Part shown: positions 37,148 to 52,082 of the stretch, piece after piece
Layout of the letters: each line of letters begins with the position of its first letter
How positions within the stretch are numbered: the first letter of the stretch is position 1
From: Actinomycetes bacterium
GTDB lineage: Bacteria; Actinomycetota; Thermoleophilia; Miltoncostaeales; Miltoncostaeaceae
Direction: 5' to 3'
Length of the DNA stretch: 52,082 bases
NCBI GenBank assembly: GCA_024639225.1
Contig: JAHEIS010000002.1
Location: forward strand, 1-52,082
Translations under genes and position numbers: made by a program
Notes under the pieces: model-generated
Database searches by the model: none
What the model was told of the DNA's origin: nothing
Seen by the model: the letters and a program-made list of their open reading frames with translations, nothing else

Positions 37148-37435
37148 CTAGCCGGCGTCGGCTGCGGTCTCGCGCTTGGTCAGCGCGAGCAGGAGGGTGT
37201 AGATCTCGTCCAGCCCCTCCTCGGACATCGGACCGGGGTTCGCGGCGACCAGATAGTCGCGCATCCAGCGCTCGCGGTCGGGGTCGACGAACTCGAGGCC
37301 GACCTCGGCCTTGTAGGCGCGCAGGCGCTCGACGAGCTTCAAGCGCGCGTTGATGGCCGCGACGATCTTCTGGTCGTTGTCCATGATCGCGTCGCGCATC
37401 TGGCGGACGAGTGCATCTTGTGCGGGGTCTCCCAT
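37148..37435 (-). CDS. Chorismate mutase, AroQ type II
   Basis: This 95-aa all-helical protein turns chorismate into prephenate, the branch to phenylalanine and tyrosine. The first helix reads RQMRDAIMDNDQKIVAAINA with the N-terminal Arg. R..LVERLRAYKAEVG supplies the conserved Lys, and DPDRERWMRDYL and the last helix follow. There is no signal peptide. The ATG at 37435 gives the normal length for a free-standing mutase. Partner DAHP synthase or aromatic genes are not nearby. The open frame extends further upstream, but that part overlaps the divergent tatA gene and is not convincing. Confidence 0.85.
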   Translation of the reverse strand: MGDPAQDALVRQMRDAIMDNDQKIVAAINARLKLVERLRAYKAEVGLEFVDPDRERWMRDYLVAANPGPMSEEGLDEIYTLLLALTKRETAADAG

Positions 37436-37526
37436 GCGGCGGGGGACGGTAACAGGGTTGTAAGCCTTCCGTGCGACGGACGTGGGGTTTGTCCCGTCTT
37501 GGCCTGTGGCGCTAGCCTCTGGGGTG

Positions 37527-37880
37527 ATGCAACTCGCGCTGCCGGAGATTCTCCTGATCCTCACGATCGCGCTGCTGGTCTTCGGGCCCAAGCGCCTTCC
37601 GGAGATGGGGCGGACGATCGGCAAGGGGCTGCGCGAGGTGCGCTCCGCCATCGACGGCATCGATCCACGGACCGCGCTCGACCCCGATCCGGTCCCCGAC
37701 GAGTCCGACGACGACCTCGACGAGATGATCGCCGACGACGAGATCGCGGCGCTCGATGATGAGGCCGACGCCGCTGCACGGCCCGCGGACCCCGACGATG
37801 ACGGGGACTGGCCCGACGAATCGGCGGGTGGCGTGGACGCGAGTGATCCCGGCGACGGGACGCGCGCGGACACGGCCTGA
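37527..37880 (+). CDS. tatA: Twin-arginine translocase subunit TatA/TatB type
   Basis: This 117-aa protein has one short N-terminal membrane helix (LALPEILLILTIALLVF). The FGPKRLPEMGRTIGKGLREV hinge and amphipathic helix are the TatA/B hallmark. The C-terminal 70 residues are very acidic (Asp/Glu-rich, no helix breakers). TatA and TatB cannot be told apart with certainty. The conserved FG and lone hinge fit TatA. It precedes tatC by 11 nt, and together they export folded proteins with an RR signal. Confidence 0.88.
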   Translation: MQLALPEILLILTIALLVFGPKRLPEMGRTIGKGLREVRSAIDGIDPRTALDPDPVPDESDDDLDEMIADDEIAALDDEADAAARPADPDDDGDWPDESAGGVDASDPGDGTRADTA

Positions 37881-37891
37881 GCGATGCCCTC

Positions 37892-38698
37892 ATGAGGCAA
37901 CTGAAGCTCCCACTCCGGCGCGCCAGGCCCGGGGACAAGATGACCGTCGTCCAGCACCTCACCGAGCTGCGCACGCGCATCCTCGTCGCTCTGGCCGCCC
38001 TTCTGATCGCCTTCGTGGCGATGTACGCCATCAACGACCGGATCATCGATCTGCTGTCGGCTCCGCTGCCGGACGACCAGGGCGACCTCGTCACGCTGTC
38101 CCCGACGGAGCCGTTCTTCACGGTGATCAAAGTCAGCTTCTACGCGGCGCTCATCGTCTCGATGCCCGTCATCCTCTACCAGATCTACGCATACGTGATC
38201 CCAGCCGTCGCCGACACCTCCCGGCGGGTGATGCTCGCGGTCGTGGCCGGCGTGTCATCCCTGTTTCTGGCCGGCGTCGCGTTCGGCTACTACGTGGTGT
38301 TGCCGGTCGCCCTGGGATTCCTCCTGAACTTCGGCGACGGCTCCTTCGACACCCAGCTCCGCGCCGGCGAGTACTACGGGTTCGTCAGCGCGCTGCTCCT
38401 GGGATCGGGGGCCCTGTTCGAGGTTCCGATCGCGATGCTCGCCATGGCACGTCTGGGCGTCGCGAGCGCCGATCTCTACCGGAAACACTGGCGTATCGCC
38501 GTCGTGATCATCGCGACGATCGCCGCCGTGCTCCCCGGCGGTGATCCGCTGAGCATGATCCTGCTGATGCTCCCCCAGCTCCTCCTCTACTGGGTCGGCA
38601 TCCAGCTGGCCGCCCGCTTCGGCGGCACTCCTCTGTGGATGCGTGAGAGCTGGGCCGCCCGCGACGACGACGGCTCGGCGCCGGCCGAGGGCTCTTAG
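37892..38698 (+). CDS. tatC: Sec-independent translocase subunit TatC
   Basis: TatC recognises twin-arginine signal peptides. The 268-aa protein has the six-helix membrane fold. MTVVQHLTELRTRI is the conserved first cytoplasmic segment, with the glutamate in HLTELR (family signature). SPTEPFFTVIKVSFYAALIV and FGYYVVLPVALGFLLNF are canonical. The C-terminus ends in a polar tail. It is convergent with the ABC ATPase gene and the two ends overlap by 4 nt. Confidence 0.94.
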   Translation: MRQLKLPLRRARPGDKMTVVQHLTELRTRILVALAALLIAFVAMYAINDRIIDLLSAPLPDDQGDLVTLSPTEPFFTVIKVSFYAALIVSMPVILYQIYAYVIPAVADTSRRVMLAVVAGVSSLFLAGVAFGYYVVLPVALGFLLNFGDGSFDTQLRAGEYYGFVSALLLGSGALFEVPIAMLAMARLGVASADLYRKHWRIAVVIIATIAAVLPGGDPLSMILLMLPQLLLYWVGIQLAARFGGTPLWMRESWAARDDDGSAPAEGS

Positions 38699-39624
38699 GC
38701 CGTCGCCGGCGCCGGCGCGTCCTCGCTGAGGCCGTGGCCGGTCTGCACGAGGAAGACGTCTTCGAGCGTCGCGGGCCGCTCGGCGAGAACCGGAAAGCCA
38801 CGGGCGTCCAGGCGGGCCCGGGCGGCCCGGCGATCGTCGGTGAAAATGATGGTCCGGCCCGCGCTGCGACGCACCGCCCTGACCGTGTTCGCCACCGCCG
38901 CCCCGGCGCCCGGAGCGTCGCACTCGACGGCCCATCGGCCGGTCGTCTGCGCGACGAGGTCCTCCGGCGAGCCCGAGAGCGTGATCGCGCCCCGGTCCAT
39001 GAGGTAGAGCCGGTCGCACAACTGAGCGGCCTCGTCCATGTAGTGAGTCGTGATGACGACGGTCACCCCGCGGGACTTCAGGTCGCGGATGCGCTCCCAG
39101 ACCAGCTGGCGGGCCTGGGGATCGAGGCCGGTCGTGGGCTCGTCGAGCAGGATCAGGTCGGGCCGGTTGATCAGGGCCCGGCCGATCTGCAGTCGGCGCA
39201 TCATGCCCCCCGAAAGCTGTTCCACCGGATCGTCCGCCCGCCCCGAGAGGCTCATGAGCTCCAGCAACTCGTCGGCGCGGGCCGCGGCCTCGGACCCGGT
39301 GATCCCGAAGTAGCGGGCGTAGACGATCAGGTTCTCGCGCACCGTGAGCTCGACGTCGAGGTTGGTCTCCTGCGCGACCACCCCGAGCCGTGCTTTGAGT
39401 GCTCGCGGCGCGGTCGAGGGATCTCGGCCCAGGACGCTCAGCTCGCCCCCGTCCCGCGGGCTGAGGCAGCTCAGCATCCGCATGGTGGTCGTCTTGCCGG
39501 CCCCGTTGGGGCCGAGAAACCCGACACACTCGCCCTCGGCGATGGTGAAGCCCACGCCGTTGACGACGCGGGCGTCTCCGTATCTCTTGAGCAGGCCGGT
39601 CGCGGTGACGGCCGGGATGGGCAC
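38695..39624 (-). CDS. ABC transporter ATPase (NodI/DrrA type), no permease adjacent
   Basis: This 309-aa ABC ATPase has Walker A GPNGAGKTTT, a Q-loop, signature LSGGMMRRLQIGRALI and Walker B LILLDEPTTGLDPQ, with H-loop TTHYMDEA. The fold is one nucleotide-binding domain plus a C-terminal ferredoxin-like extension (about 225-300), as in drug- and polysaccharide-export ATPases. A permease gene normally follows, but the next downstream gene on this strand would lie in the convergent tatC. It is 26 nt after the UDP-sugar decarboxylase gene, so it may work in the same surface-sugar pathway with a permease encoded elsewhere. Confidence 0.87.
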   Translation of the reverse strand: MPIPAVTATGLLKRYGDARVVNGVGFTIAEGECVGFLGPNGAGKTTTMRMLSCLSPRDGGELSVLGRDPSTAPRALKARLGVVAQETNLDVELTVRENLIVYARYFGITGSEAAARADELLELMSLSGRADDPVEQLSGGMMRRLQIGRALINRPDLILLDEPTTGLDPQARQLVWERIRDLKSRGVTVVITTHYMDEAAQLCDRLYLMDRGAITLSGSPEDLVAQTTGRWAVECDAPGAGAAVANTVRAVRRSAGRTIIFTDDRRAARARLDARGFPVLAERPATLEDVFLVQTGHGLSEDAPAPATA

Positions 39625-39650: not shown

Positions 39651-40586
39651 TCAGGAGGTCGGCACCAGCCCACCGTAGGACAGCGTGCGGGTCAGACCCT
39701 CCTCGAGCTCGACCTCGGGCTCCCAGTCCAGAAGCTCGCGGGCGAGCGTGATGTCCGGCTGACGCACCTGCGGGTCGTCCTGCGGCAGCGCCTCGTGGAC
39801 GATCTCGGAGGAGCTGCCGGTGAGCCGGATGACCGCCTCTGCCAGCTCCAAGATCGTGAACTCGCCCGGATTGCCGATGTTGACCGGTTCGTGCATGTCG
39901 CTGTTGACGAGGCGCAGGAAGCCCTCGATCAGGTCCGAGACATAGCAGAACGAGCGCGTCTGGCTCCCGTCACCGAACACGGTGATCGGCTTGCTCTCGA
40001 GCGCCTGGCGCATGAACGTCGGCACGGCACGGCCGTCGTGGGGGCGCATGCGCGGACCGTAGGTGTTGAAGATGCGCACGATGTGCGTGTCCACACCCTG
40101 CTGGCGGTGGTAGGCCATCGTGAGAGCCTCGGCGTAGCGCTTGGCCTCGTCGTAGACCCCGCGGGGACCGATGGGGTTCACGTGGCCCCAGTAGGTCTCC
40201 GACTGGGGGTGGACCTGCGGGTCGCCGTAGACCTCACTCGTCGATGCGAGCAGGAAGCGGGCCCGGTGCTTCTTGGCCAGGCCGAGCATGTTGTGCGTCC
40301 CGTAGGAGCCGACCTTGAGTGTGTGGAGCGGTAGCCGCAGGTAGTCGATCGGGCTCGCGGGCGACGCGAGATGGAAGACGTAGTCGACCGTCCCGTCCAG
40401 TTCGAGGTGCTCCGTCACATCGTGCTGCAGGAACTCGAAGTTCTCCGAGCGGATGTGCTCGATGTTCTCGAGAGTTCCCGTGTCGAGGTTGTCCGCGCAG
40501 ATCACGCGGTGCCCCTCGGAGAGAAGTCGTTCACACAGATGGGAGCCGAGAAAGCCGGCGCCGCCGGACACAAGAGAAGTCGTCAT
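39651..40586 (-). CDS. UDP-glucuronate decarboxylase (UDP-xylose synthase) type SDR
   Basis: This 311-aa extended short-chain dehydrogenase has GGAGFLGSH (8-16), [11 protein letters not shown] (with T116 and E118) and catalytic Y145 and K149 in [10 protein letters not shown]. The FNTYGPRM and [10 protein letters not shown]-like segment ([15 protein letters not shown]) is the UDP-sugar pocket. The E118-type residue and [14 protein letters not shown] are typical of UXS, which makes UDP-xylose from UDP-glucuronate. A dTDP-glucose dehydratase is less likely. The ATG at 40586 has no ribosome-binding site, but TACCAT lies 7 nt upstream, so it may be leaderless. Confidence 0.87.
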
Positions 40587-40593
40587 GCGGACG

Positions 40594-40599
40594 ATGGTA
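40594..40599 (-). promoter_or_regulatory. Probable -10 element of the UDP-xylose synthase gene (leaderless)
   Basis: The minus strand reads TACCAT, 7 nt before the ATG with no ribosome-binding site between. It would split the GT2 gene upstream from this gene into separate transcripts. Confidence 0.35.
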
Positions 40600-40639
40600 G
40601 CGCTGCCCGGGCTGATTCCACGACTCCCCGCCCGAGGGG

Positions 40640-41362
40640 TCAGCGCGCCCCGGGGCGCGCCACCAGTCCCGCGACATCCCACCCGATGCGCAGGGCGTGG
40701 GCCCCGCCGGCCAGCCCATCGTGCATCGACACACCGTCGGAGGGGTACATCCGTACAGGAACCTCCGCCATACGAACTCCCCTGCGGGCCAGTCGTATCA
40801 GCAGGCTGCTCTCGGTGAGGCCGCGCGGGAAACCGGCGTCGGCGATGTCCCGGGCCACCCACCGCTTCAGGGCGCGGTAGCCGGACGTCGGGTCGGACAG
40901 GTCCGGCCCGCCCGCCCTCGCGGTCAGCCAGCGACAGCCGGCCATCCCGGCCCGGCGGAGGACCGTGGGCCGGTAGTCGCCACCGTCGAGAAAGCGCGAT
41001 CCGACGACCACGTCCGCTCGGGCGAGGTTCTCGATGAGCCGAGGGAGATCCGCCGGCTCGTGCTGCCCGTCCCCGTCGATCTGCGCGATCACCCGGGAAC
41101 CGCCCGCAAGCGCGGCCTCGTACCCATGACGCAGGGCCCCGGCATATCCCGACCACTCGTCGAGGCGGAGCACGTCGGCGCCCGCCTCGCGCCCGGCTCC
41201 CCCCGTGTCGTCGGACGACGCGTCGTCGACCACGATCGTGCGGACTTCCGGCAGTGCGTCCTGAACCCCCTCGACGACCCGGGCGATCGTCGGCTCTTCG
41301 TTGCGGGCGGGGATCACGACGGTGACCCCACCGGTCGCGATCTCAGTCTGCGGGAGGTACAT
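40640..41362 (-). CDS. Glycosyltransferase family 2 (dolichol-phosphate-mannose synthase-like)
   Basis: This 240-aa GT-A enzyme has [14 protein letters not shown] at the N-terminus, [10 protein letters not shown] (D46, D47) for sugar-nucleotide binding and the metal motif IDGDGQHEP (96-103). The C-terminal [16 protein letters not shown] and amphipathic end fit family members that transfer a sugar to a lipid phosphate. I prefer the ATG at 41362, which overlaps the GT-C gene end by 20 nt. The cluster suggests surface-polysaccharide building. Confidence 0.87.
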
Positions 41363-42854
41363 CGGCGGGCCAACGGTAGATGGTGGCCCGGCCGACAACG
41401 GCCTCTGTCTCCAGCAGCGCCCAGGGAACGCGTCTGCGCACCTCGCGCCGGTAGAGCCGCCAGTTCGCGGGCCAGCCCCGTCGGACGCTCACCGGCGCCG
41501 CGACCACATAGCCGCCCCGGTACTGGGAGGGATCCGGCAACGGTTCGAGCATCCGGCGCAGGCGACGCTCGAGCGGCTCGAGCAGCGCCGGATCGACCAC
41601 CGCACGCACCGGCAGCCGCTCGTCGGCGAGCCAGGTCTCGAGCTTGCGGTGCCAGACGAAGCTCTCGGCGAGAACGGGTGCGGCATCCCGCCCACGCAGT
41701 TCGGAGACGACGCGGTTGAGCAGCAGGACATCTCGGTCGCGTGCCTCGGCCTCTGCGCGGGCCTCAGTGGCCATTACGGCGGCGACGAGGGCGAGCCCGA
41801 TGACGACCGGCGCGAGAAGCGCGGGCCGGCGCGCCAGCGGCACCGCCATGGCCAGCGCAAGCGGAATGGATGCCAGGGTGAGAAAGCGCAGGGGCTTGTC
41901 GAGATTAACGAGCACGCCCAGTTCCAGGTAGATCGCAGTCCACGCGAGCCACGCCATGGCGAGAGCCCCTCCCGCTCCGGCCAGCTGGCGTCGTCGGTTG
42001 CCGGGGGCGAGCATGATCAGCGCGGCGACGCCGACCCCCGGGAGCAGCAGGAAGAGCGGATGCCCCGGGTCGAGTGCCCCACGCAATGCCCGCGCCAGGT
42101 AGGAATCGTCCCAGGAGTAGACGGCGAGCGGATTGCGCCAGATCGTCTCGGTCGGCGCGGCCAGAAACGGCCGGCCGACCGACGCACCGGAGGCGATCGC
42201 GAGACCCGCCGCGAGCGCCGCGACCGCTCCGACTCCGGCCACGCCCGCGGCCAGCCCCCGCGGGCCGGCCCGACGCCCGGCGAAGATCACGATGGGAGCC
42301 ATCACGAAGATGCTCTCGCGCACGAACCATCCCGCTCCCAGCGTCGCCCCGGCCGCCGCTGCCCACCAGATGCGCCGCCGCGGGCTGCGACCGGCGCGCA
42401 GGGCGCTCCAGACGGCGAGGCCGACGAACGCCGGCATCAACGCGTCCGGGCGCAGGCGCGTCCCCATGATGACCTCCATCGGCGCGGCGGCCACGAGGGC
42501 GGCGCCGATGAGGCCAACCCGTGGCCCACCGATCTCCCGCCCGATCAGGCCCGCCACCAGCACGGCCGCCAGGGACCCGACGAGCGGCCACGCGACGGCG
42601 GTGTAGTCGCTCGCCCCGAGAGTGCGGAACAGGAGCGCGACCGGCCAGAGGAAGGTGATCCGATAGCCGAACCACTCGGCATCGCCCTCGGGCAGATGGC
42701 CGCTGCTGAGGTTCCGGGCGACGACGGCGTAGCGCCCGTCGTCAGAGTTGTGGGCGAACGAGACCCCGCCGAAGGCCCACAACCGCAGCGCCGCAGCGCC
42801 CACCAGGACGCCGAGCATCGCGAGCGGCCAGCTCGCCCTCCGGAGCCGCTTCAC
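41343..42854 (-). CDS. GT-C-type integral membrane glycosyltransferase (ArnT/GT39-like)
   Basis: This 503-aa protein has about ten membrane helices and a soluble C-terminal part (about 400-500). Its first loop carries the GT-C acidic pair in HNSDDGRYAVVARNLSSGHL. The later GAGWFVRESIFVMAP loop also matches the superfamily. Such enzymes use lipid-linked sugars outside the membrane. The GTG start at 42854 overlaps the flippase stop. It probably modifies or extends the polysaccharide, or an outside protein or lipid. The substrate is unknown. Confidence 0.75.
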   Translation of the reverse strand: MKRLRRASWPLAMLGVLVGAAALRLWAFGGVSFAHNSDDGRYAVVARNLSSGHLPEGDAEWFGYRITFLWPVALLFRTLGASDYTAVAWPLVGSLAAVLVAGLIGREIGGPRVGLIGAALVAAAPMEVIMGTRLRPDALMPAFVGLAVWSALRAGRSPRRRIWWAAAAGATLGAGWFVRESIFVMAPIVIFAGRRAGPRGLAAGVAGVGAVAALAAGLAIASGASVGRPFLAAPTETIWRNPLAVYSWDDSYLARALRGALDPGHPLFLLLPGVGVAALIMLAPGNRRRQLAGAGGALAMAWLAWTAIYLELGVLVNLDKPLRFLTLASIPLALAMAVPLARRPALLAPVVIGLALVAAVMATEARAEAEARDRDVLLLNRVVSELRGRDAAPVLAESFVWHRKLETWLADERLPVRAVVDPALLEPLERRLRRMLEPLPDPSQYRGGYVVAAPVSVRRGWPANWRLYRREVRRRVPWALLETEAVVGRATIYRWPADVPPAD

Positions 42855-44416
42855 CGCCGCCGGACCATCGCCCGAATGCCGGACGCGGCCTCCCGGAGCT
42901 CGACCGGCGCGAGCACCCGCGTGGCGAGGAGATAGACCAAGCCCGCCGCCAGGCTCTTGACGCCGAGTCCGACGACGAGCTCGGACCCGACCCGACCGTC
43001 CGTCGGGAAGACCGGGCCGAGGGCCAGGGCGGCCCCCACACCGAGTGCCGCCGCGACGACGAGGCGGCCCTGGGAGAGGGCCAGAGCACGCAGCGAGAGC
43101 CCGGTGAGATGGCGGCGCAGATAGAGGAGCGAGACGACGACGCCGATCGCTATTGCGACGGCGCTCGCCAGGGCGAGGCCCGCCTGCTCCAGGGGTCCGA
43201 TCAGCGCGAAGTCCAGCGCGATCGTGGCGACGACCACGACTCCCGTGGCGAGCATCACTTCGCGGGTGCGCTCGGCGGCGGCGAGAGCGCGATTGGCCAG
43301 GAACGCCATGAAGCCACCCCACACCGCAAAGCCGTAGAACAGCAGGGGCCGCCCCACCTGCTCGGCGCAGTCGGCGTCGCATTGGCTCTCGCCGAACAGC
43401 CCCACGAAGTCACGGAACACGAGCTGGGCGATCTCCTGCGGGAACAAGACGATCCAGGCCGACAAAGGCACGGCGACCAGGCCGAGAACACCCGCCACGC
43501 GCTGCACCGCGAGGGCGGCGTCGCCCCGTCGCCCCTCGGCGAGCATGCGGGCGAGGGCGGGGAACAGCGGCGTCACAAGAGGGAGCAGCAGCGCCGCGCG
43601 GGGGACCTGCCCGAGCGTGTTGGCGAAGGCCAGGGCGGTGGTGCGCCCGTCATCCAGGGTGTTGGCGAAGATCTTGTCGGTGATGTTGTTGATCTGCTGC
43701 AGGAACGATGCGGCGGCGACGGGCACCGCCAGAGCGCCGACCACCGCCAGCCGCGGGTGACGGAACGTCGGTCGGGCCCGGGCCTCGGCGCGGAGACGCA
43801 GGAACTGGGGTGCCTGGACGACCAGTTGCAGCAGACCGCCGGCAACGACGCCCCACGCGGCAACCTCGATACCGATGGTGCGTGCGCCGATGAGAAGCCC
43901 CGCGATGATGCCCAGGTTCAGCGCCACCCCGACCGCCGCGGGCGCCGCGAAACGCCCGCGAGCCTGCAGGAGGGCGGTTGCCAGGGCCGACAGGCCCTGC
44001 AGGGTCACGGCGGGCGCCATGATCCGCAGCAGATCGGCGGCCTCGGCCGCCCGTTCGGGTTTCGTGACGAACACGGCACGCCCGACCAGCTCGGGGAACA
44101 GGGCGACGGCGGCGCTGAGGATGACCAGGCCCAGCGCGGACCAGGCGGCGACGGCCCACAGGAGCCGCCAGGCGGAGTGGTCCCCGGACTCGGCCGACTC
44201 GCGCTGGAATGCCGGGATCACGGCGGTGACGAGCGTGAAGAGCAGGATCGCCGCGAGCGAGTTGACGATCACCAGCGACGAGATGAAGGCATCGGTCTCG
44301 CCGGTCGTGCCGTAGGCACCCGCGAGCACCATCTCCCGGACCAGCCCGAGCAGGCGGGAGGCCACCAGCAGGAGGGCGATGATGCCCGCGGCCCGCGCCA
44401 GGCGGCCGGTGGTCAT
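42851..44416 (-). CDS. murJ: MurJ/MviN-type lipid flippase
   Basis: This 521-aa protein of the MOP superfamily has about 14 membrane helices. The N-terminal LLVASRLLGLVREMVLAGAY is a hallmark of MurJ, with the conserved Arg in the cavity helix. It would flip lipid-linked oligosaccharides such as lipid II. Within a polysaccharide cluster it may instead serve as the repeat-unit flippase, doing the job of Wzx. The ATG at 44416 is 3 nt after the propeller gene stop. Confidence 0.85.
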   Translation of the reverse strand: MTTGRLARAAGIIALLLVASRLLGLVREMVLAGAYGTTGETDAFISSLVIVNSLAAILLFTLVTAVIPAFQRESAESGDHSAWRLLWAVAAWSALGLVILSAAVALFPELVGRAVFVTKPERAAEAADLLRIMAPAVTLQGLSALATALLQARGRFAAPAAVGVALNLGIIAGLLIGARTIGIEVAAWGVVAGGLLQLVVQAPQFLRLRAEARARPTFRHPRLAVVGALAVPVAAASFLQQINNITDKIFANTLDDGRTTALAFANTLGQVPRAALLLPLVTPLFPALARMLAEGRRGDAALAVQRVAGVLGLVAVPLSAWIVLFPQEIAQLVFRDFVGLFGESQCDADCAEQVGRPLLFYGFAVWGGFMAFLANRALAAAERTREVMLATGVVVVATIALDFALIGPLEQAGLALASAVAIAIGVVVSLLYLRRHLTGLSLRALALSQGRLVVAAALGVGAALALGPVFPTDGRVGSELVVGLGVKSLAAGLVYLLATRVLAPVELREAASGIRAMVRRR

Positions 44417-44419
44417 CTG

Positions 44420-45862
44420 TTACCGCGGCCGGAAGCCGTAGAGCGTGCGGACTCCGGTGATGATGAGCAGATCATCGCTTGATACCGCGGGACTGTAGCG
44501 ACCGTCAGGATGGGACCAGACCTCCTCGCCCGTCGCCCGGTCGAGGGCGAAGGTGCGCCCTTCACTCGGCACCTCGGCGATCGTCGATGCGTACACGAGA
44601 TCGCCGATCACCGTCGGCGAGCCGGAGATGCGCTCGCCGGCGTCATGGCGCCAGTTGACCCGACCGGTCTCGGCGTCGAGTGAGTAGAGCCCGTTGTCGT
44701 AGCTGCCGACGAACACCGACTCCTCGGCGATCGATGCGCTCGAGTAGACGAAGTCGTCGAGGACGCGGACCCAGGCGATCTCCCCGGTGCGGGCCGACAG
44801 CGCGATGACCCGACCGTTGATGTTGCCGAGAAAGACCTGCCCGTACGCGACGGCGGGACCGGCATAGAAGCGTCCGGCGCCACGCAGGAGCGTTCCGGGG
44901 CTCTCCGTGCGCCAGGCCAGCTCGCCGTCATCGACGTTCCAGGCGCTGACCCGGCCGGCGTAGTCACCGACAACGACGGTCTCGCGTGCCACGGCCAGAC
45001 TCGACTTGACGTCTCCTGTGGCCTGCGCCTGCCAGTTGATCTCACGCGTCCTCAGGTCGATGCTCAGCACCCGGCCGGCGAGCGTGCCGACGAAGACCGT
45101 GCCGTCGACCACCAGCGGAGAGCTCTCGCTCGGCGCCCCGAGAGGTAGGGTCCAGGCCCGCGTCCCGTCGTCGGCGCGGAGCGCGATGAGATCACCGGCG
45201 AGCGTCGCGAACAGCACCAGGTTGCCCACGACCGCGGGTGCAGATGCCATCCGCCCACCCAGGCGCACACGCCACCGCTCCGCGCCGGTCGCGATCGCGA
45301 GACTGATCGCGAGGCCGCGGTTCGTCCCGACATAGAGGGCACCGTCGTCGATGACCGGGGGGAACTCCAGGAGGGAGCCGGCGTCGTATTCCCAGAGGTC
45401 TTCAAACGGTGGGGCGATGTCACTCTGGAGCACTGAGCGCGTGCGCCCGCGGTCGAGCCCATACTGGGGCCAGTCCGAGGCGGGTGCCGCGCCCGGCGCC
45501 GCGGCGGCGAGGAACGCATCGCCCGAGCCCTCAACGGTCTCGGAATCGAAGGCCCCGCGGGCAACCAGGGCTCCCGTGAGGGTCGCCGCGGCCACGACGA
45601 CGACCAGGCCGAGGACGATCAGCCTCATCCAGCGGCGGGAACGTCTCGCGGACGGCTCGGGCGCTGGAGCCTCTGGAGACGCCGGACGGGACGGTGGCTC
45701 CGGCGCCGGCTCTGTCCGGGATGGCCCGGCCCTCATGGCCTGCTCGGCCGTGTCGGGCGCAGCCGGGTCCGGCCGGCCGCCGAAAGGGTTGAGAGCGCGT
45801 ATGAGGACGACGGCCGCTGCGCCGAGGACGACCCAGCCGATGCCCCGGAGAAAGCGGATCAC
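44420..45862 (-). CDS. Membrane-anchored PQQ-type beta-propeller protein
   Basis: This 480-aa protein starts with two possible membrane segments (about 7-25 and 74-96), separated by a Pro/Ala/Glu-rich linker. A beta-propeller follows (about 130-480) made of repeats ending in W or GxxxAL, such as GRVIALSARTGEIAWVR and NGLYSLDAETGRVNWRHD. Conserved lines, including SLLEFPPVIDDGALYVGTNRG, recur in the next gene. The fold resembles BamB/PQQ-repeat proteins, but no PQQ-dehydrogenase catalytic motif is visible, so it is more likely a scaffold. GTG start at 45862 overlaps the partner gene by GTGA. Confidence 0.75.
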   Translation of the reverse strand: MIRFLRGIGWVVLGAAAVVLIRALNPFGGRPDPAAPDTAEQAMRAGPSRTEPAPEPPSRPASPEAPAPEPSARRSRRWMRLIVLGLVVVVAAATLTGALVARGAFDSETVEGSGDAFLAAAAPGAAPASDWPQYGLDRGRTRSVLQSDIAPPFEDLWEYDAGSLLEFPPVIDDGALYVGTNRGLAISLAIATGAERWRVRLGGRMASAPAVVGNLVLFATLAGDLIALRADDGTRAWTLPLGAPSESSPLVVDGTVFVGTLAGRVLSIDLRTREINWQAQATGDVKSSLAVARETVVVGDYAGRVSAWNVDDGELAWRTESPGTLLRGAGRFYAGPAVAYGQVFLGNINGRVIALSARTGEIAWVRVLDDFVYSSASIAEESVFVGSYDNGLYSLDAETGRVNWRHDAGERISGSPTVIGDLVYASTIAEVPSEGRTFALDRATGEEVWSHPDGRYSPAVSSDDLLIITGVRTLYGFRPR

Positions 45863-47298
45863 GATGGACCCCGGCCGGCCGCGGGCCCGTGCCAAGCGCT
45901 GACCGTCCGTACGTCGACGAGAAAGAGGCTGTGGCCTGCCGCGACCGCCGGCGAGTAGCGCCCGGCCTCGGACTCCCAGACGACTCGCCCATCGGCGACG
46001 GCCGCCGCGATCGTCCGCCGAGGCTCGTTGTCGCGTGCGAGCACCGAGCTGTAGACCACATCGCCCACGACGGTTGCGGATCCCCCGATGCGCCCGCCAA
46101 GTGATGTGGACCATAGCGGGCGGCCGTCGGCGAGGCGCAGTGCTTCCAGCTCGCCCGTGAAAGAGCCGATGTAGACCCGTCCGTCGGCGATCGCCGGGCT
46201 GGCGTAGACGAAGGCGCCCTTCTCGCGCCGCCAGCGCTCGGCTCCGGTCCGGGCGTCGAGGGCGAGGACGTATCCGCCGACGTCGCCGATGACGACGATG
46301 CCCTGGGCCACGGCGGGCCCGCCGTAGAACCGCTTGCCTCCGCTCCAGGTCCAGGCCGGGACGCCGGTGCGCAGGTTCACGGCCTGGACCTGGCCGCCGT
46401 AGTCACCGACGATGGCCAGCTCGCCGGCTCGCGCCGCGGCGGACTTGATCGCACCGGCCGCGCGGTGGCTCCAGACGAGCTCGCCCGTGGTGGCCCGGAC
46501 CGCGCGCAGCGTCCCGCCCGTGTCCCCGAAGACGATCAGGTCCTCGAAGATGAGGGGAGAGCTCTCCGTCGGGCCGTCGGTCGGAAACCGCCACAGCTCC
46601 TTGCCTCCGCCGGTCGAGTAGGCGGTGAGAAAGCCATCCATTGACGTGACGAACGCGCGCCCACCGGAGATCGCGGGGCTGGAGGCGATTGGCGCTCGCG
46701 CGCGCCGGGTCCAGCGGCGTTCACCCGTGAAGGCGTCGACGGCGATGATCCGCCCCCGATTGGTACCCAGCACCGCGAGCCCGTTGCGCACGGCAGGCGG
46801 AAACTCGACCAGCGAGCCTGCGTCGAGCCTCCAGTCCGGTGGCCCGTCCGGTCGCGGGGCCACGACGTCACGCAGGTGACGGGTGCGCTGGGGCGTTCCG
46901 CCGTAGACGGGGCTCTGGATAGAGCTGCGGTACACGGTTGCCCGTGCGCTCAGCCCGTCGGGCCCCTCGACCCGGATCAGCGCGGTGTCCGGATTCACAC
47001 CTGCCCCACCGGCGCGGATCGAGTCGGTGCCGGAGGGGACCGCGACCCGGCCGTCGGGTCCGGTCGTGAGTCGTGTCCGCGCCCCGCCGTCGCGCGCGAC
47101 CACCTCGGCGTTCGCCAGCGGCCGCCCGGTGTCGCCGTCGGTCACCTCGACGACGGGAAGCGACTCAGCAGCCGTCGCCTCGGGCTCGGCCGCGGTGTTC
47201 TTGCTGCCGGCAGCCCCGCACCCGGCTCCCGCGCTGATGATCAGCAGTGCGGCGAGCAGGGCGAGGGCCCGCTCAGGCCGCCCCGCCCCGCCGGTCAC
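45859..47298 (-). CDS. PQQ-type beta-propeller lipoprotein with N-terminal Ig-like domain
   Basis: This 479-aa protein has a signal peptide ending in a lipobox-like SAGAGC (Cys at about 27), so it should be a lipoprotein. Residues about 48-105 look like a carboxypeptidase-regulatory or Ig-like fold (PVVEVTDGDTGRPLANAEVV, then TGPDGRVAVPSG). From about 135 a propeller repeats (GTNRGRIIAVDAFTGERRW, GGYVLALDARTGAERWRREK). It is clearly a paralogue of the preceding protein. It overlaps the Wzz-like gene by 26 nt. Function in surface-sugar assembly is inferred from context. Confidence 0.77.
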   Translation of the reverse strand: MTGGAGRPERALALLAALLIISAGAGCGAAGSKNTAAEPEATAAESLPVVEVTDGDTGRPLANAEVVARDGGARTRLTTGPDGRVAVPSGTDSIRAGGAGVNPDTALIRVEGPDGLSARATVYRSSIQSPVYGGTPQRTRHLRDVVAPRPDGPPDWRLDAGSLVEFPPAVRNGLAVLGTNRGRIIAVDAFTGERRWTRRARAPIASSPAISGGRAFVTSMDGFLTAYSTGGGKELWRFPTDGPTESSPLIFEDLIVFGDTGGTLRAVRATTGELVWSHRAAGAIKSAAARAGELAIVGDYGGQVQAVNLRTGVPAWTWSGGKRFYGGPAVAQGIVVIGDVGGYVLALDARTGAERWRREKGAFVYASPAIADGRVYIGSFTGELEALRLADGRPLWSTSLGGRIGGSATVVGDVVYSSVLARDNEPRRTIAAAVADGRVVWESEAGRYSPAVAAGHSLFLVDVRTVSAWHGPAAGRGPS

Positions 47299-48112
47299 GG
47301 CCGCTCCAGGCCAGGGCGAGAATCATCCCCACCACGGCTCCCAGAAGGGCCGAGATGAGCACGGTGCGAACCCGACGCGGTCCACTGGTGGAGGAATCCG
47401 GGCTCCCGGCACGGGTGATGATGCCCGGAGCGCGGAGTTCGGAGTTGGTGGCCAGCAGCAATTCGGCCTCGGAGCGTCGGGTTTGGGCGTTCCCGAGTTC
47501 CTGCTGAGCGGCGAAGACCAGCGCCGCACGGGAAGCCGGATCCGTCGCCGGGGCGGTCCGGAGTTCCGCGACGACGCCCTCGAGGCGGGTGACGTTGCCC
47601 TCTTCGCGGACGATCTGCTTCTTGAGCACCTCATCGCTCTGGGCGAAGCGCTGGCCATTGAAGGTGACGATCTGTTCGGCGTAGGCGTTGGTGACCGCCT
47701 GCGCGGTCTCGGCCTCGGGATGGGTGAAGGAGATCGCCGCGAGCGTTGGCAGGTTTCCGGCCGAACCCGGTGCGCGCGGGATGGTGATGCTCAGATCCGA
47801 GCGGATTCGCCCCGGTGCGAGGCCGGTCTGCTCGGCTACGGGGTCGACGATGGCGTCGCCCTCGAGCACCGTCGGCGCGATCGTGGGGTTGGTGAACGGC
47901 AGCGTCACCACGCCGCCTGCCGGCGTGGTCGCCTGGCCGAGATAGACCTGGGCGGTCCCGGTATAGGTCGTTGACCGGATGAATGAGAGCGCGAGCCCGG
48001 CAAGGGCGGCAACGACGATCGCCGTGATCACGATCGTCCGCCCACGCCAGATGGCGCGGCCGTAATCCGCGAGGGTCAGATCGCGGTCGGAAGAGGAGGA
48101 GTCAACGCTCAC
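47273..48112 (-). CDS. Wzz/chain-length-determinant-like membrane protein
   Basis: This 279-aa protein has two membrane helices, one at about 26-47 (IVITAIVVAALAGLALSFIR) and one near the C-terminus (VLISALLGAVVGMILALAW). The region between is extracytoplasmic and includes a coiled-coil part (VLKKQIVREEGNVTRLEGVV). This is the layout of polysaccharide co-polymerases that set chain length. It lacks a C-terminal tyrosine-kinase domain. GTG at 48112 is chosen because the preceding bases are a natural start of transcription, not coding. The stop overlaps the propeller gene. Confidence 0.82.
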   Translation of the reverse strand: MSVDSSSSDRDLTLADYGRAIWRGRTIVITAIVVAALAGLALSFIRSTTYTGTAQVYLGQATTPAGGVVTLPFTNPTIAPTVLEGDAIVDPVAEQTGLAPGRIRSDLSITIPRAPGSAGNLPTLAAISFTHPEAETAQAVTNAYAEQIVTFNGQRFAQSDEVLKKQIVREEGNVTRLEGVVAELRTAPATDPASRAALVFAAQQELGNAQTRRSEAELLLATNSELRAPGIITRAGSPDSSTSGPRRVRTVLISALLGAVVGMILALAWSGRDRRGGAA

Positions 48113-48173: not shown

Positions 48174-48800
48174 TCATTCCTCGCGCTCGGGGAGGTCGAA
48201 CGCCCCGCCCTCGGCGGCGTAGGTGTCGTCACGGCCCATCACGACGCCGAATGTCCGGAGCACGATCGCCAGGTCCAGACGTGGGCTCCAGTCCCGGACG
48301 TATTCGAGGTCCATCTCGATCCGCTGCGACCAGGGCAGCGAGTTCCGCCCCCGGACCTGTGCCAGGCCCGTGATGCCCGGTTTCGCGTCCAGCCTCCCGC
48401 GCTGGCGGGCGTCGTAGCGCTCCACCTGGGCCGCGACCGTCGGCCGCGGACCGACGATGCTCATGCTCCCGCCGAGAACGTTGAACAGCTGTGGCAGTTC
48501 ATCGAGGGAGGTCCGCCGGAGAAAACGCCCCGCCCGGGTGATGCGGTCGTCGCCCGCCGTCACACGCAGGCCTGAGCCCATGCTCTCGGCGTCGACCACC
48601 ATCGTCCGGAACTTGTTCACCCGGAAAGGACGCCCGTGGAGGCCTACTCGTTGGTGCCGGAAAAGCGCCGGGCCCCGCGAGTCGATCCGCACCCAGGCGG
48701 CGAGGACGGCCATCACCGGCAGCGTGGCCACGAGCGCGGGGATACCGATGGCCAGATCCATCGCGCGCTTGCGCTGCCCGCCCGTTGCCCTCATGTTCAT
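48174..48800 (-). CDS. Initiating sugar transferase (undecaprenyl-phosphate hexose-1-phosphotransferase)
   Basis: This 208-aa protein of the bacterial sugar transferase family has KRAMDLAIGIPALVATLPVM as a re-entrant membrane helix. DSRGPALFRHQRVGLHGRPF, VNKFRTM and RRTSLDELPQLFNVLGG-SMSIVGPRP are canonical. It moves a hexose-1-phosphate to undecaprenyl phosphate and so starts the repeat unit. The lack of extra N-terminal helices gives the short WbaP C-terminal-type form. ATG at 48800 begins one base after the previous gene's stop codon. Confidence 0.92.
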   Translation of the reverse strand: MNMRATGGQRKRAMDLAIGIPALVATLPVMAVLAAWVRIDSRGPALFRHQRVGLHGRPFRVNKFRTMVVDAESMGSGLRVTAGDDRITRAGRFLRRTSLDELPQLFNVLGGSMSIVGPRPTVAAQVERYDARQRGRLDAKPGITGLAQVRGRNSLPWSQRIEMDLEYVRDWSPRLDLAIVLRTFGVVMGRDDTYAAEGGAFDLPEREE

Positions 48801-48801
48801 G

Positions 48802-50001
48802 TCAGACGAGACTTTCGACGACGCTGACGAAGCGCCGCGCGAGCGCCGCGCGGTCGTAGTGTTCGCGCACCCAGGCCCGGCCCGCCGCACCCATCCGCTC
48901 CGCCCCCTCGGGATCGGCGCGGAGCGCGGCGACGGCCGCCGACAGGGCTCCGGGGTCCTCAGGCGGGATGTTCAGCCCGCACCCCGAGGCCTCGACGAGC
49001 CGGGTGAGCTCACCGACCGGAGCACCGGCAATGATCGGCCGGCCGGCGCCGAGGTAGTCGAACGCCTTGTTGGGCAGTGCTCCCGCGAACAGGGGCACGT
49101 CTTGATACGGCAGCAGGCAGACGTCGGCGCGGGCCAGCCAGGACGGCACGTCCTTCTTGGGGACGGGGTCGATGAAGGTGACGTTGTCGAGGCCCTGCTC
49201 AGCCGCCCGCGCCACGAGTCCGGCCTTCTGGTCGCCGCCGCCCACGAGCACGAAGCGGACGCCCGGATCCGAGACTCGCGCGGCGCCCAGCAGCGTGTCG
49301 AGCGCGCTGTACGTGCCATGGGCCCCGACGTACATGGCGACGAACTCGCCGGGCGCCAGATCGACCGGCTCGGAGCCGGCGCCGATGTCAAGATCGACGC
49401 CGTTGGTGATCAGGCTCACCTTGGCGGCCGGTACACCGGCCGCGATCACGCCGTCGCGGATGCCCTCGGTCAGGGTGACGATGCGGTCCGCCCTGCGGTA
49501 GCAGTAGCGCTCCATCCGGCGGGCCGCAGCGATGGCGCGGGGGTTGCTGAGCAACCCCATCTCCACCAGTGAGTCCGGCCAGAGGTCGCGCACCTCGAGC
49601 ACGAAACGCGCCCGTCGCGCCTGTGCGATCCCGGCTGCCGCCGCCGCTGCGGGAAGCGACGGCGAGGAGGCGATGACGACGTCCGGTCGGGGCGCGCGCG
49701 CGGCGGCGACGCCCGCCCAGAAGGCGAAGCTGCCGTAGTTGGCGGCGCGGGAGCGCAGGTCGACCCCGTAGCCCGGCGTCGAGTAGGTGCGCATGATGCG
49801 CAGGTCGCCCTCCTGCTCGGTCACGATCTTCCGACCGCGGTACTGCGGGGCGATCGTGCGCTCTTTGTGCTGCACATACGAGGTGATCACGGTCACATCG
49901 TGGCCACGGGTGGCGAGCGCTCGGGTGTGCTGCCAGTGGCGAACCCCCCCGGGCTGGTCCGCCGAGACGAAGTATTGCGAGACGTAGGTGATCCGGCTCA
50001 T
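48802..50001 (-). CDS. Glycosyltransferase family 4 (WbuB-like)
   Basis: This 399-aa GT-B enzyme has an N-terminal YVSQYFVSADQPGGVRHWQH with the donor-domain start. It then has RARFVLEVRDLWPDSLVEMG, ADRIVTLTEGIRDGVIAAGV, ITNGVDL and the C-terminal pocket FDYLGAGRPIIAGAPVGELT. It would add a sugar to the lipid-linked acceptor made by the neighbouring transferase. Its stop lies one base before the sugar transferase start, and it overlaps the next upstream gene by 4 nt. Confidence 0.92.
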   Translation of the reverse strand: MSRITYVSQYFVSADQPGGVRHWQHTRALATRGHDVTVITSYVQHKERTIAPQYRGRKIVTEQEGDLRIMRTYSTPGYGVDLRSRAANYGSFAFWAGVAAARAPRPDVVIASSPSLPAAAAAAGIAQARRARFVLEVRDLWPDSLVEMGLLSNPRAIAAARRMERYCYRRADRIVTLTEGIRDGVIAAGVPAAKVSLITNGVDLDIGAGSEPVDLAPGEFVAMYVGAHGTYSALDTLLGAARVSDPGVRFVLVGGGDQKAGLVARAAEQGLDNVTFIDPVPKKDVPSWLARADVCLLPYQDVPLFAGALPNKAFDYLGAGRPIIAGAPVGELTRLVEASGCGLNIPPEDPGALSAAVAALRADPEGAERMGAAGRAWVREHYDRAALARRFVSVVESLV

Positions 50002-52082
50002 GGGCCGAGTATCTCCCGGTAGAAGTCGGTCAGGCGATCGGCCTGGCTCTCGAAACGGTGCTCCCTCTCGAAGGCACGCCGTCCGTTTGCGCCAAGCCGC
50101 CGCGCCAGGTCGTCATCCTGCAGGAGGCGCCGGATCGCCCCGGCGTGCGCGTCGGCCTCGTCGGGGGGCACGAGCAGACCGCAGTCGGCGTCTCGGACGA
50201 TCGGGGCCAGTCGACCGAGAGCGCTGGCGACGACCGGCCGGCCGGCCGCCATCGCCTCGATCAGCTTCGTGGGAACCGCGCGGTCGTAGTTACCGTGGCG
50301 CTGCAGTGGGATCCAGGCGACGCGGGCCGCGGCCAGCAGATCCGGGACGGCACCGTGGTCGACGGCGCCAACGTGCTCGACGCCGGCCGGGAGATCGCCC
50401 GGATCTCCCGGCCCGGCGAGCACGAGGCGCGCGCCCGGCACATCGACGCGTGGGAAGGCCTCCTTCATCAGATCGAGCCCACGAATGGGGACGAGCCCGC
50501 CGACATAGACGACCCTGGGCGCGGCCGGTAGGGGCACCGGCGGGGGAAAGGACGCACCCCACGGCGCGTTGGTCACAGTGCGGGTCCGCGCGCCGGCGGC
50601 AGCGAAGCGCGCCCCGAGGTCGCCGTTGACCGTCACGGTCCCGTCCAGTCGTCGCGCCGCGGCGCGTTCGGCCCGCTCCGCCGCCCAGGCGAGCGGACGG
50701 CGAATGGGGCCGGGGAGCCACTTCTTGGTCCGCGTCGTCTCGCCGAGGTACTCGTGGACGTCGTAGACCACCTTGGCCGAGCCCGTCCGAGAGAGCCAGA
50801 GCGCGGCCGGCAGCAGCTCGGGGTCGTGGATGTGGATGACATCCGCCTCCTCTGCCCGGGCCCCCCGGGCGAGGCGCCAACCCGCCAGCAGTCGCCGAGC
50901 GCGCGGGACCGGTGTCGCGAAGCCGCCCACCCGGGCGTCCGCACCCGCGCGGCGCAGGGCGGTGACCTCCTTGTGGAAGATCCGGACGTCACGCGGCCGG
51001 TGGACGCTCGTCAGATGCAGGACGCGCTGCCCGGAGAGGTCGGCCCCTTGGCGTCCCCTCGCGGGCGACCGGATCGGTCCGAGACGGGCGCCGTCGGCGG
51101 CGAGGCGGTCGATCAGGTCCTCCCAGAGGGCCCCGAATCCCGGGGCGCGCGCGTCGGCGAGGTAGGTGTTGTGCCACAGCAGCGCGGCGGCCCCACCGGC
51201 GGCACGAACCCGGTCCAGGACGCGGAGCGCCCGCTCGCGGGCGGCGTCGGCGTCCAGACCGAGGGACGAGTGCAGGGTCGTGTCCATGACTGCCAGGGGG
51301 ACGAGCCGCAGGTCGGCTGCCCGCTCCTCGCCCACGAGCCATGGCCGGAACGGCCGGGCGATCCCGCAGGCGAAGCCCGGCGCCTCACTGAAGCCCAGGC
51401 TCGCGTCGTACGCCAGGCCGAGCTCTTCCAGCCAGCGCACCGTCTCGTGGTAGCGGAAGCGTAGGTAGTGGAAGCGCACGCCTTCCACGGAGCCGGCCTC
51501 GGCGCGGAGGATCGCGAGCTCGTCAGCGAGCGCGTCCCGATCCTCGCTCGAGGCGAAGGCACCGTGGAGGCCGACCTCGCCGCCGGCGGCCTGGACGGCG
51601 CGCACGAGATCAGCCCGCTCGCGCTCGTAGACCGCGCGCGGGCTGCCGTCGAGTTCGTGGGCGTTGTGCCCGATGAAGAAGACCGTCGGTGCCAGGCCAC
51701 GCCGCCCGCTGGTCCAGAGAAGGTCGGGAATGTTGTCCCACGGATCCCGCCGCGCCAGCGACCCGAGTCGCCCGATGCCCCCGGCGCGCACCTCGGAGGC
51801 GATGCCGCGCGCCGTTCGCCGTCGCAGCCGGTCGATGTCGTGCGTGAGGTACACCGACCACGTCGCAGGGGGCGCGATGCCCAACCCCGCCCCGATCGCG
51901 GCGATGTAGCCCTCGACGGGCGGATCCTCGAGATCGAGTCCGGCGATGTTCGCGAACGCGGATGCCGACAGGGGAAGCCGGTCGAACCGGTCGCGTTCGG
52001 GGACGCGCAGCTCGTCCCAGCGGGCCAGCAGATAGAAGGCTGAGACCAGGATGTCTCCCGGGATGGCCGCCGCGGGCTGGGC
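49998..52082 (-). CDS. Polysaccharide-deacetylase-like and GT4 fusion protein, 5' end outside the window
   Basis: The frame stays open to the window edge, so the N-terminus is missing. From the edge inward, a DUF7033-like segment (ILVSAFYLLARWDELRVPER, ERDRFDRLP) leads to YLTHDIDRL, the start of a NodB-type deacetylase domain (HDID supplies metal ligands). FHYLRFRYHETVRWLEELG and WHNTYL follow. After an Arg/Gly-rich linker (near 51060) a complete GT4 domain begins with VLHLTSVHRPRDVRIFHKEV and ends with RPVVASALGRLAPIV and the usual Glu. One chain thus pairs deacetylation and glycosyl transfer. The stop overlaps the GT4 gene downstream by 4 nt. Confidence 0.8.
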   Translation of the reverse strand, partial: AQPAAAIPGDILVSAFYLLARWDELRVPERDRFDRLPLSASAFANIAGLDLEDPPVEGYIAAIGAGLGIAPPATWSVYLTHDIDRLRRRTARGIASEVRAGGIGRLGSLARRDPWDNIPDLLWTSGRRGLAPTVFFIGHNAHELDGSPRAVYERERADLVRAVQAAGGEVGLHGAFASSEDRDALADELAILRAEAGSVEGVRFHYLRFRYHETVRWLEELGLAYDASLGFSEAPGFACGIARPFRPWLVGEERAADLRLVPLAVMDTTLHSSLGLDADAARERALRVLDRVRAAGGAAALLWHNTYLADARAPGFGALWEDLIDRLAADGARLGPIRSPARGRQGADLSGQRVLHLTSVHRPRDVRIFHKEVTALRRAGADARVGGFATPVPRARRLLAGWRLARGARAEEADVIHIHDPELLPAALWLSRTGSAKVVYDVHEYLGETTRTKKWLPGPIRRPLAWAAERAERAAARRLDGTVTVNGDLGARFAAAGARTRTVTNAPWGASFPPPVPLPAAPRVVYVGGLVPIRGLDLMKEAFPRVDVPGARLVLAGPGDPGDLPAGVEHVGAVDHGAVPDLLAAARVAWIPLQRHGNYDRAVPTKLIEAMAAGRPVVASALGRLAPIVRDADCGLLVPPDEADAHAGAIRRLLQDDDLARRLGANGRRAFEREHRFESQADRLTDFYREILGP

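What the first reader, a model, noticed from the sequence alone, without database searches (positions are those of the whole stretch)
41343..48112. Two paralogous PQQ-type propellers beside a MurJ-type flippase and a Wzz-like protein
One is a lipoprotein with an Ig-like domain, the other a membrane protein with two anchors. They share lines such as FPPxxxxGxxxxGTNRG and overlap by GTGA. Propellers of this kind are not standard parts of polysaccharide clusters. They could form an outside platform for assembly or export, possibly a new surface-glycan module.
Basis: partly seen in the sequence, partly recalled or inferred. Interest (0 to 1): 0.6.

Follow-up and report, generated by a model that had tools for sequence, protein, structure and literature searches.

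The report
Paired propellers in a glycan-assembly operon
A bacterium of the class Thermoleophilia carries, inside an operon for building a cell-surface sugar polymer, a matched pair of doughnut-shaped proteins predicted to sit outside the cell membrane, and relatives in two families keep the same pair beside the same polymer-length gene, so it is probably an undescribed accessory part of that assembly line.

Summary
Two paralogous 8-bladed PQQ/BamB-type propellers, 40% identical, lie in one tight minus-strand run between a Wzz-type gene and a MurJ-type gene: PropL (45859-47298, lipoprotein with Ig-like domain) and PropM (44420-45862, membrane-anchored).

Across the class Thermoleophilia, PropL has PropM beside it in 19 of 20 genomes and a Wzz gene within 5 kb in 22 of 22 testable loci. 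The Wzz subfamily has a propeller beside it in 35 of 36 loci. The same gene set (sugar transferase, PropL, PropM, Wzz, GT2, UDP-xylose synthase) occurs in a second family (Gaiellaceae by one record title). The "missing" polymerases (two Wzy_C genes) lie on two other contigs of the same genome whose gene order matches relatives. The MurJ-type protein is a second, divergent MurJ that lost two cavity arginines kept by canonical MurJs of the class: probably a Wzx-like flippase.

The propellers are not BamB (no BamA in 61 genomes) and not PQQ enzymes. Both share a blade-specific channel ring, E-A-E-K/T-Y-Y-x-Y. Best reading: glycan-binding accessory subunits of a Wzx/Wzy system. Ligand and partners are untested.

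The parts
45859..47298 (-). PropL: lipoprotein, Ig-like (CarboxypepD_reg-like) domain plus 8-bladed PQQ/BamB-type propeller
44420..45862 (-). PropM: membrane-anchored 8-bladed PQQ/BamB-type propeller; starts inside the PropL stop (GTGA)
47273..48112 (-). Wzz-type polysaccharide co-polymerase without kinase domain
42851..44416 (-). MurJ2: divergent MurJ-type flippase lacking the arginines equivalent to E. coli MurJ R52 and R270; probable Wzx role
41343..42854 (-). GT-C (PMT_2/GT39-type) glycosyltransferase
40640..41362 (-). GT2, polyprenyl-phosphate sugar synthase type (start taken as the ATG at 41362)
39651..40601 (-). UDP-glucuronate decarboxylase (UDP-xylose synthase)
38695..39624 (-). Lone NodI/DrrA-type ABC ATPase, conserved at the end of the cluster
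48174..48890 (-). Bac_transf initiating polyprenyl-phosphate sugar-phosphate transferase (start uncertain)
48802..50001 (-). GT4 glycosyltransferase
49998..52082 (-). Polysaccharide-deacetylase-like plus GT4 fusion, cut by the contig end

Best explanation
PropL and PropM are extracytoplasmic accessory subunits of one dedicated Wzx/Wzy-type glycan pathway. Inferred pathway: the sugar transferase and GT4 enzymes build a polyprenyl-linked, probably xylose-containing unit; MurJ2 flips it; Wzy polymerises it under Wzz; GT2 plus GT-C decorate it outside. PropM (one conserved transmembrane anchor) and PropL (lipid anchor plus Ig arm) stand on the outer face of the membrane. They bind the lipid-linked unit or growing chain in the conserved propeller channel (E-A-E-K/T-Y-Y-x-Y), and so hand it on or hold it at the polymerase/co-polymerase. 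Shown: co-conservation, gene order, fold, invariant ring, divergence of MurJ2. Inferred: outside location, ligand, contacts with Wzz/Wzy/MurJ2, effect on chain length or export.
For: One tight minus-strand gene run: 4-bp overlaps at PropL/PropM and MurJ2/GT-C, a 3-bp gap at PropM/MurJ2, a 26-bp Wzz/PropL overlap. PropM lies directly beside MurJ2 (0-64 bp) in 24 of 24 Miltoncostaeaceae loci. Full-length PropL has PropM on the same strand within 3 kb in 19 of 20 genomes of the class and Wzz within 5 kb in 22 of 22 loci with enough flank. The Wzz subfamily at E <= 1e-68 lies beside a propeller in 35 of 36 testable loci; the other Wzz genes of the same genomes do not. Same module in a second family without MurJ2. 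PropM is next to a Wzy_C gene in other lineages (L047, L048, L180). PropL copies of both families form one branch: SH-aLRT 91, and the held-together tree is 26.9 lnL better than the free one, which favours the two subunits having been kept as a pair since before the families split. Ring invariant in nearly all PropM and PropL and absent from E. coli BamB. Two Wzy genes on contigs whose gene order matches relatives.
Against: No expression, binding or knockout data. Solirubrobacterales keep a single PropM between sepF and hisF/hisA with the same ring, so the ligand may be general to the envelope. Genus g8 has PropM-MurJ2 without a detected Wzz (G007: L064). Family f2 has a related Wzz without propellers. 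Other Wzz/Wzy loci of this genome need no propeller. Glu in blades 1 and 3 of the ring is also found in designed PQQ consensus blades (Cake8).
Confidence: 0.55

Rival explanations
1. The propellers are purely structural scaffolds (as BamB is for BamA): they hold Wzz, Wzy, MurJ2 and the glycosyltransferases together and bind no glycan.
For: BamB is the nearest natural solved fold; PropM keeps different neighbours in different lineages (MurJ2, Wzz, Wzy), as a general clamp might.
Against: The most conserved residues are not generic repeat positions but a blade-specific ring at the channel mouth, which suggests a ligand.
Confidence: 0.25
2. The propellers are sensors or regulators of envelope glycan state (as the outer propeller of AfsK-type kinases may be), placed in the operon for feedback, not for assembly.
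For: PropM and PropL match the propeller part of AfsK (NF053615, 78-84 bits); PropM sits by sepF in Solirubrobacterales.
Against: Neither has a cytoplasmic signalling domain; PropL is a lipoprotein with no inside part; no kinase or anti-sigma gene is conserved beside the pair.
Confidence: 0.1
3. They are enzymes (quinoprotein or glycan-modifying lyase/hydrolase type) acting on the exported glycan.
For: Invariant Glu, Lys and Tyr around the channel could be catalytic; PQQ_2/PQQ Pfam matches.
Against: TIGR03075 (PQQ dehydrogenase) 93.9 bits against a cut-off of 480; no cysteine in PropM and only the lipobox cysteine in PropL.
Confidence: 0.07
4. PropM is a general envelope or division factor that happens to sit in the oriC-proximal operon; PropL is a by-product duplicate.
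For: PropM is widespread in the class and is outside glycan clusters in Solirubrobacterales.
Against: The association with Wzz, sugar transferase and GT2 recurs in two families with different gene order; PropL probably diverged before the split and was never found without Wzz where flank allowed.
Confidence: 0.05

Closest known systems
BamB (YfgL), outer-membrane protein assembly factor
   Same: 8-bladed PQQ-type propeller, lipoprotein (as PropL), nearest natural solved fold
   Different: TIGR03300 151.5 bits against cut-off 285.2; no Omp85/BamA in 61 genomes; no EAEKYYxY ring in E. coli BamB; glycan operon context; Ig-like domain
Wzx/Wzy-dependent polysaccharide assembly (for example ECA, O-antigen)
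   Same: Initiating sugar transferase, MOP-type flippase, Wzy, Wzz in one locus; WzyE-WzzE are reported to form a complex (PMC11706664)
   Different: Adds two outer-face propellers; flippase is a MurJ-type protein; no outer membrane expected
MurJ lipid II flippase
   Same: PF03023 over the whole length
   Different: TIGR01695 205 bits against cut-off 235.55; second copy besides a canonical MurJ; both diagnostic arginines lost in 24 of 24
AfsK-type Ser/Thr kinases and YxaL (secreted PQQ-type propeller of Bacillus velezensis)
   Same: Extracytoplasmic PQQ-type propeller; YxaL among the top fold matches
   Different: No kinase domain; conserved glycan operon

Membership tests
Wzx/Wzy-dependent polysaccharide pathway | Initiating polyprenyl-phosphate sugar-phosphate transferase in the cluster | tested here: met
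   PF02397 E 6e-63; TIGR03025 273 bits
Wzx/Wzy-dependent polysaccharide pathway | Wzy polymerase | tested here: met
   Wzy_C genes in the same place in relatives; in this genome on contigs C58 and C192, whose gene order matches; not on the window contig itself
Wzx/Wzy-dependent polysaccharide pathway | Flippase of the MOP superfamily dedicated to the cluster | tested here: met
   MurJ2, second MurJ in Miltoncostaeaceae; substrate not testable here. Module in the second family has no such gene in the loci read
Wzx/Wzy-dependent polysaccharide pathway | Wzz chain-length protein | tested here: met
   PF02706 27.0 bits, cut-off 25.5
Wzx/Wzy-dependent polysaccharide pathway | Product is a polymer on the surface | not testable with these tools
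   needs glycan analysis
BamB | Score over the curated BamB cut-off | tested here: not met
   PropM 151.5 and PropL 139.1 against 285.2
BamB | BamA (Omp85) in the genome | tested here: not met
   0 of 61 genomes; controls positive in diderms
BamB | 8-bladed PQQ-type propeller | tested here: met
PQQ-dependent dehydrogenase | Score over the curated cut-off | tested here: not met
   TIGR03075 93.9 of 480
PQQ-dependent dehydrogenase | Vicinal cysteine pair near the cofactor (from general knowledge) | tested here: not met
   0 Cys in PropM, only the lipobox Cys in PropL
MurJ (lipid II flippase) | Score over TIGR01695 cut-off | tested here: not met
   205.3 of 235.55
MurJ (lipid II flippase) | Cavity arginines equivalent to E. 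coli R52 and R270 | tested here: not met
   absent in 24 of 24 MurJ2; present in the canonical MurJs of this family and of family f3 compared (two MurJ-type proteins of family f4, L072 and L073, also differ there). R24A and R255A of Thermosipho MurJ are non-functional (PMC6465408); R255 = E. coli R270 is my own equation

The most novel reading that the evidence does not exclude
The pair is an obligate third component of a Wzy-Wzz polymerase in monoderm bacteria: two propellers that bind the nascent chain through the E-A-E-K/T-Y-Y-x-Y channel and set chain length or release. It would have been recruited from an older single propeller that serves another envelope pathway next to sepF in Solirubrobacterales.
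Probability: 0.25. Interest if true: 0.75.

Novelty: new variant of a known kind. Interest (0 to 1): 0.55.

Why it matters
How monoderm Actinomycetota control the length and release of Wzx/Wzy-made polymers without the outer-membrane exporters of Gram-negatives is open. A conserved pair of outer-face propellers, with an invariant channel ring that names residues to mutate and cultured relatives to test, makes one possible answer directly testable. It also gives a function to look for in a propeller family that annotation pipelines score as BamB-like in bacteria without BamA.

Tried and rejected
The MurJ as the oriC-proximal housekeeping lipid II flippase (as in mycobacteria): rejected, because Miltoncostaeaceae genomes carry a separate canonical MurJ of about 300 bits and MurJ2 lacks the diagnostic arginines. 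BamB function: rejected, no BamA. PQQ enzyme: family cut-offs and cysteines not met. Reading the FPPx...GTNRG line as pair-specific: it is the blade-1 motif. Promoter and terminator scan: uninformative in this 70% GC DNA (0 promoters, 1 terminator-like site, chance level). First tree gave PropL as one branch, a thinned tree did not; the constraint test favoured one branch but does not prove it. Literature searches for propellers in Wzz clusters or for Miltoncostaea polysaccharides found no description. No complex prediction was available.

Full report
WHAT IS THERE. The window is the oriC region of a high-GC genome: gyrA, gyrB, recF, dnaN, dnaA, rnpA, yidC, jag, rsmG, parA, parB, followed by a minus-strand glycan operon. 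The genome is a 2.47 Mb assembly in 196 contigs. Its same-family relatives are named in public records as Miltoncostaea, Miltoncostaeales and Thermoleophilia. From upstream to downstream the operon reads: deacetylase-GT4 fusion (cut by the contig end), GT4, initiating sugar transferase, Wzz, PropL, PropM, MurJ2, GT-C (PMT_2), GT2, UDP-xylose synthase, ABC ATPase. The genes overlap or nearly touch: GTGA at PropL/PropM (45862-45859), 3 bp between PropM and MurJ2, GTGA at MurJ2/GT-C, 26 bp overlap Wzz/PropL. The UDP-xylose synthase call rests on human UDP-glucuronic acid decarboxylase 1 as best solved relative, E 1.6e-112.

THE TWO PROPELLERS. PropL and PropM are 40% identical over 346 aa; they are the only such pair in the genome. 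AlphaFold models (mean pLDDT 87 and 86) show the strand pattern of eight four-stranded blades in both, the last blade of PropM closed by an N-terminal strand. PropL adds an Ig-like sandwich (49-122) after a lipobox whose Cys is invariant in all ten relatives aligned. PropM has one conserved transmembrane helix (73-101); the first helix (2-24) is not conserved in most relatives. Best fold matches are the designed Cake8, then BamB and YxaL.

CONSERVATION OF CONTEXT. In 36 same-family genomes PropM occurs in nearly all. It is directly beside MurJ2 in 24 of 24 loci read, and usually beside Wzz. One genus (g10) has only PropM, with an ATP-grasp gene between the sugar transferase and Wzz. A minimal form in genus g2 is Wzz-PropM-MurJ2-ABC ATPase. 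In 229 genomes of the class, full-length PropL was found in 20 (9 same family, 11 in family f3). PropM lies on the same strand within 3 kb in 19 of them; the exception, G053, has PropL beside Wzz. Family f3 includes a record titled Gaiellaceae (L133 = L167). There the order is sugar transferase, ATP-grasp, PropL, PropM, epimerase, Wzz, GT2, UDP-xylose synthase, without MurJ2. Every one of 22 PropL loci with enough flank has a Wzz gene within 5 kb. Conversely, the Wzz subfamily (A5 model, E <= 1e-68, 38 hits in 61 genomes, two at contig ends) lies beside a propeller in 35 of 36. The exception, G043, has PropM next to a Wzy gene instead. In 397 genomes across the phylum no match at E <= 1e-100 lay outside the class.

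PropM WITHOUT THE MODULE. In Solirubrobacterales a single PropM sits between sepF and hisF/hisA in some 25-30 loci. In a few other lineages it is next to a Wzy_C gene (L047, L048, L180). So PropM is an older envelope protein; PropL and the Wzz-linked pair are the specialised form. The tree places PropL of both families on one branch (SH-aLRT 91). A thinned free search missed this, but the constrained tree was 26.9 lnL better, AU p 0.784. This favours, without proving, a pair older than the split of the two families.

A CONSERVED CHANNEL RING. At the same position in each blade (three residues before the strand-A proline) PropM carries E166, A206, E246, K286, Y333, Y373, S413, Y456. Six of these eight columns are invariant in 30 sequences from all lineages. 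Among 145 rows nearly all PropM read EAEKYYx(Y/F) and nearly all PropL EAE(K/T)YYSY. Two tandem second copies (L107 at 5486, L174 at 10254) have lost it. E. coli BamB does not share it. Glu alone at this position is common in PQQ-type repeats (Cake8). That the position lines the channel mouth follows from the propeller fold and the model's strand order; coordinates were not inspected. This is the reason to prefer ligand binding over pure scaffolding.

THE FLIPPASE. Miltoncostaeaceae genomes carry a canonical MurJ (about 290-330 bits) elsewhere, plus this one (145-205 bits); other families of the class lack this second type, apart from a weak match in G060, although some (f4) hold two strong MurJ-type genes. 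All 24 MurJ2 sequences have lost the arginines equivalent to E. coli R52 and R270; the canonical MurJs of this family and of family f3 keep both (numbering from solved E. coli MurJ). Two MurJ-type proteins of family f4 (L072, L073) also differ at these positions, so the loss is not unique to MurJ2. The corresponding TM8 residue is needed in Thermosipho MurJ (R255A non-functional, PMC6465408; the equivalence is mine). A Wzx-like role is therefore likely (inference).

THE POLYMERASE. Relatives have two Wzy_C genes just upstream of the fusion gene. In this genome the matching genes are on contigs C58 (ending Wzy1-GT4) and C192 (Wzy2-GT4-ATP-grasp-start of the fusion gene), exactly the relatives' order, so the cluster most likely continues there. 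The genome's other Wzz-type loci (C144, C153, C167) have no propeller, an internal control.

MECHANISM AND LIMITS. Shown by sequence: co-conservation, order, fold class, ring, MurJ2 divergence. Inferred: outer-face location, binding of lipid-linked unit or chain, contact with Wzz/Wzy/MurJ2. Against a strict Wzz partnership: genus g8 has PropM-MurJ2 without detected Wzz, and family f2 has Wzz cousins without propellers. No text in the paper library described such propellers; that library holds open-licence papers only.

VERDICT. Observation confirmed; interpretation partly supported; an apparently undescribed accessory pair of a known kind of pathway, with a sharp, testable ring.

Noticed in passing
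L036, L038-L040, L046, L109, L111, L117-L161 (many): In Solirubrobacterales a single PropM with the same channel ring sits between sepF and hisF/hisA, suggesting an older role near cell division or the envelope.
   Followed up: partly
window 38695-39624: A lone NodI/DrrA-type ABC ATPase is conserved at the end of the cluster next to tatC, with no permease gene beside it.
   Followed up: no
window 49998-52082: Fusion of a polysaccharide-deacetylase-like domain with a GT4 glycosyltransferase, conserved across the family.
   Followed up: no
window 37148-37957 (minus strand): Chorismate-mutase-like reading frame (VRQMRDAIMDNDQKIVAAINARLKLVERLRAYK) between tatA and the bifunctional nuclease gene; a similar small ORF lies there in relatives (L061, L035).
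   Followed up: no
L107:5486-6976 and L174:10254-11810: Second tandem PropM copies in glycan modules whose channel ring is degenerate (REERYYNR, LAERRFLR) next to an intact copy.
   Followed up: no
L086, L094, L097, L092, L145 (record titles): Public assemblies titled Bifidobacterium breve, Acidobacteria and Burkholderiales carry Thermoleophilia-type loci; probably mislabelled metagenome bins.
   Followed up: no
L062:7703-8758, L167:13342-14346, L068:10142-11365: PylC-like ATP-grasp genes recur beside the sugar transferase in both families, hinting at an amino-acid or acyl decoration of the glycan.
   Followed up: partly
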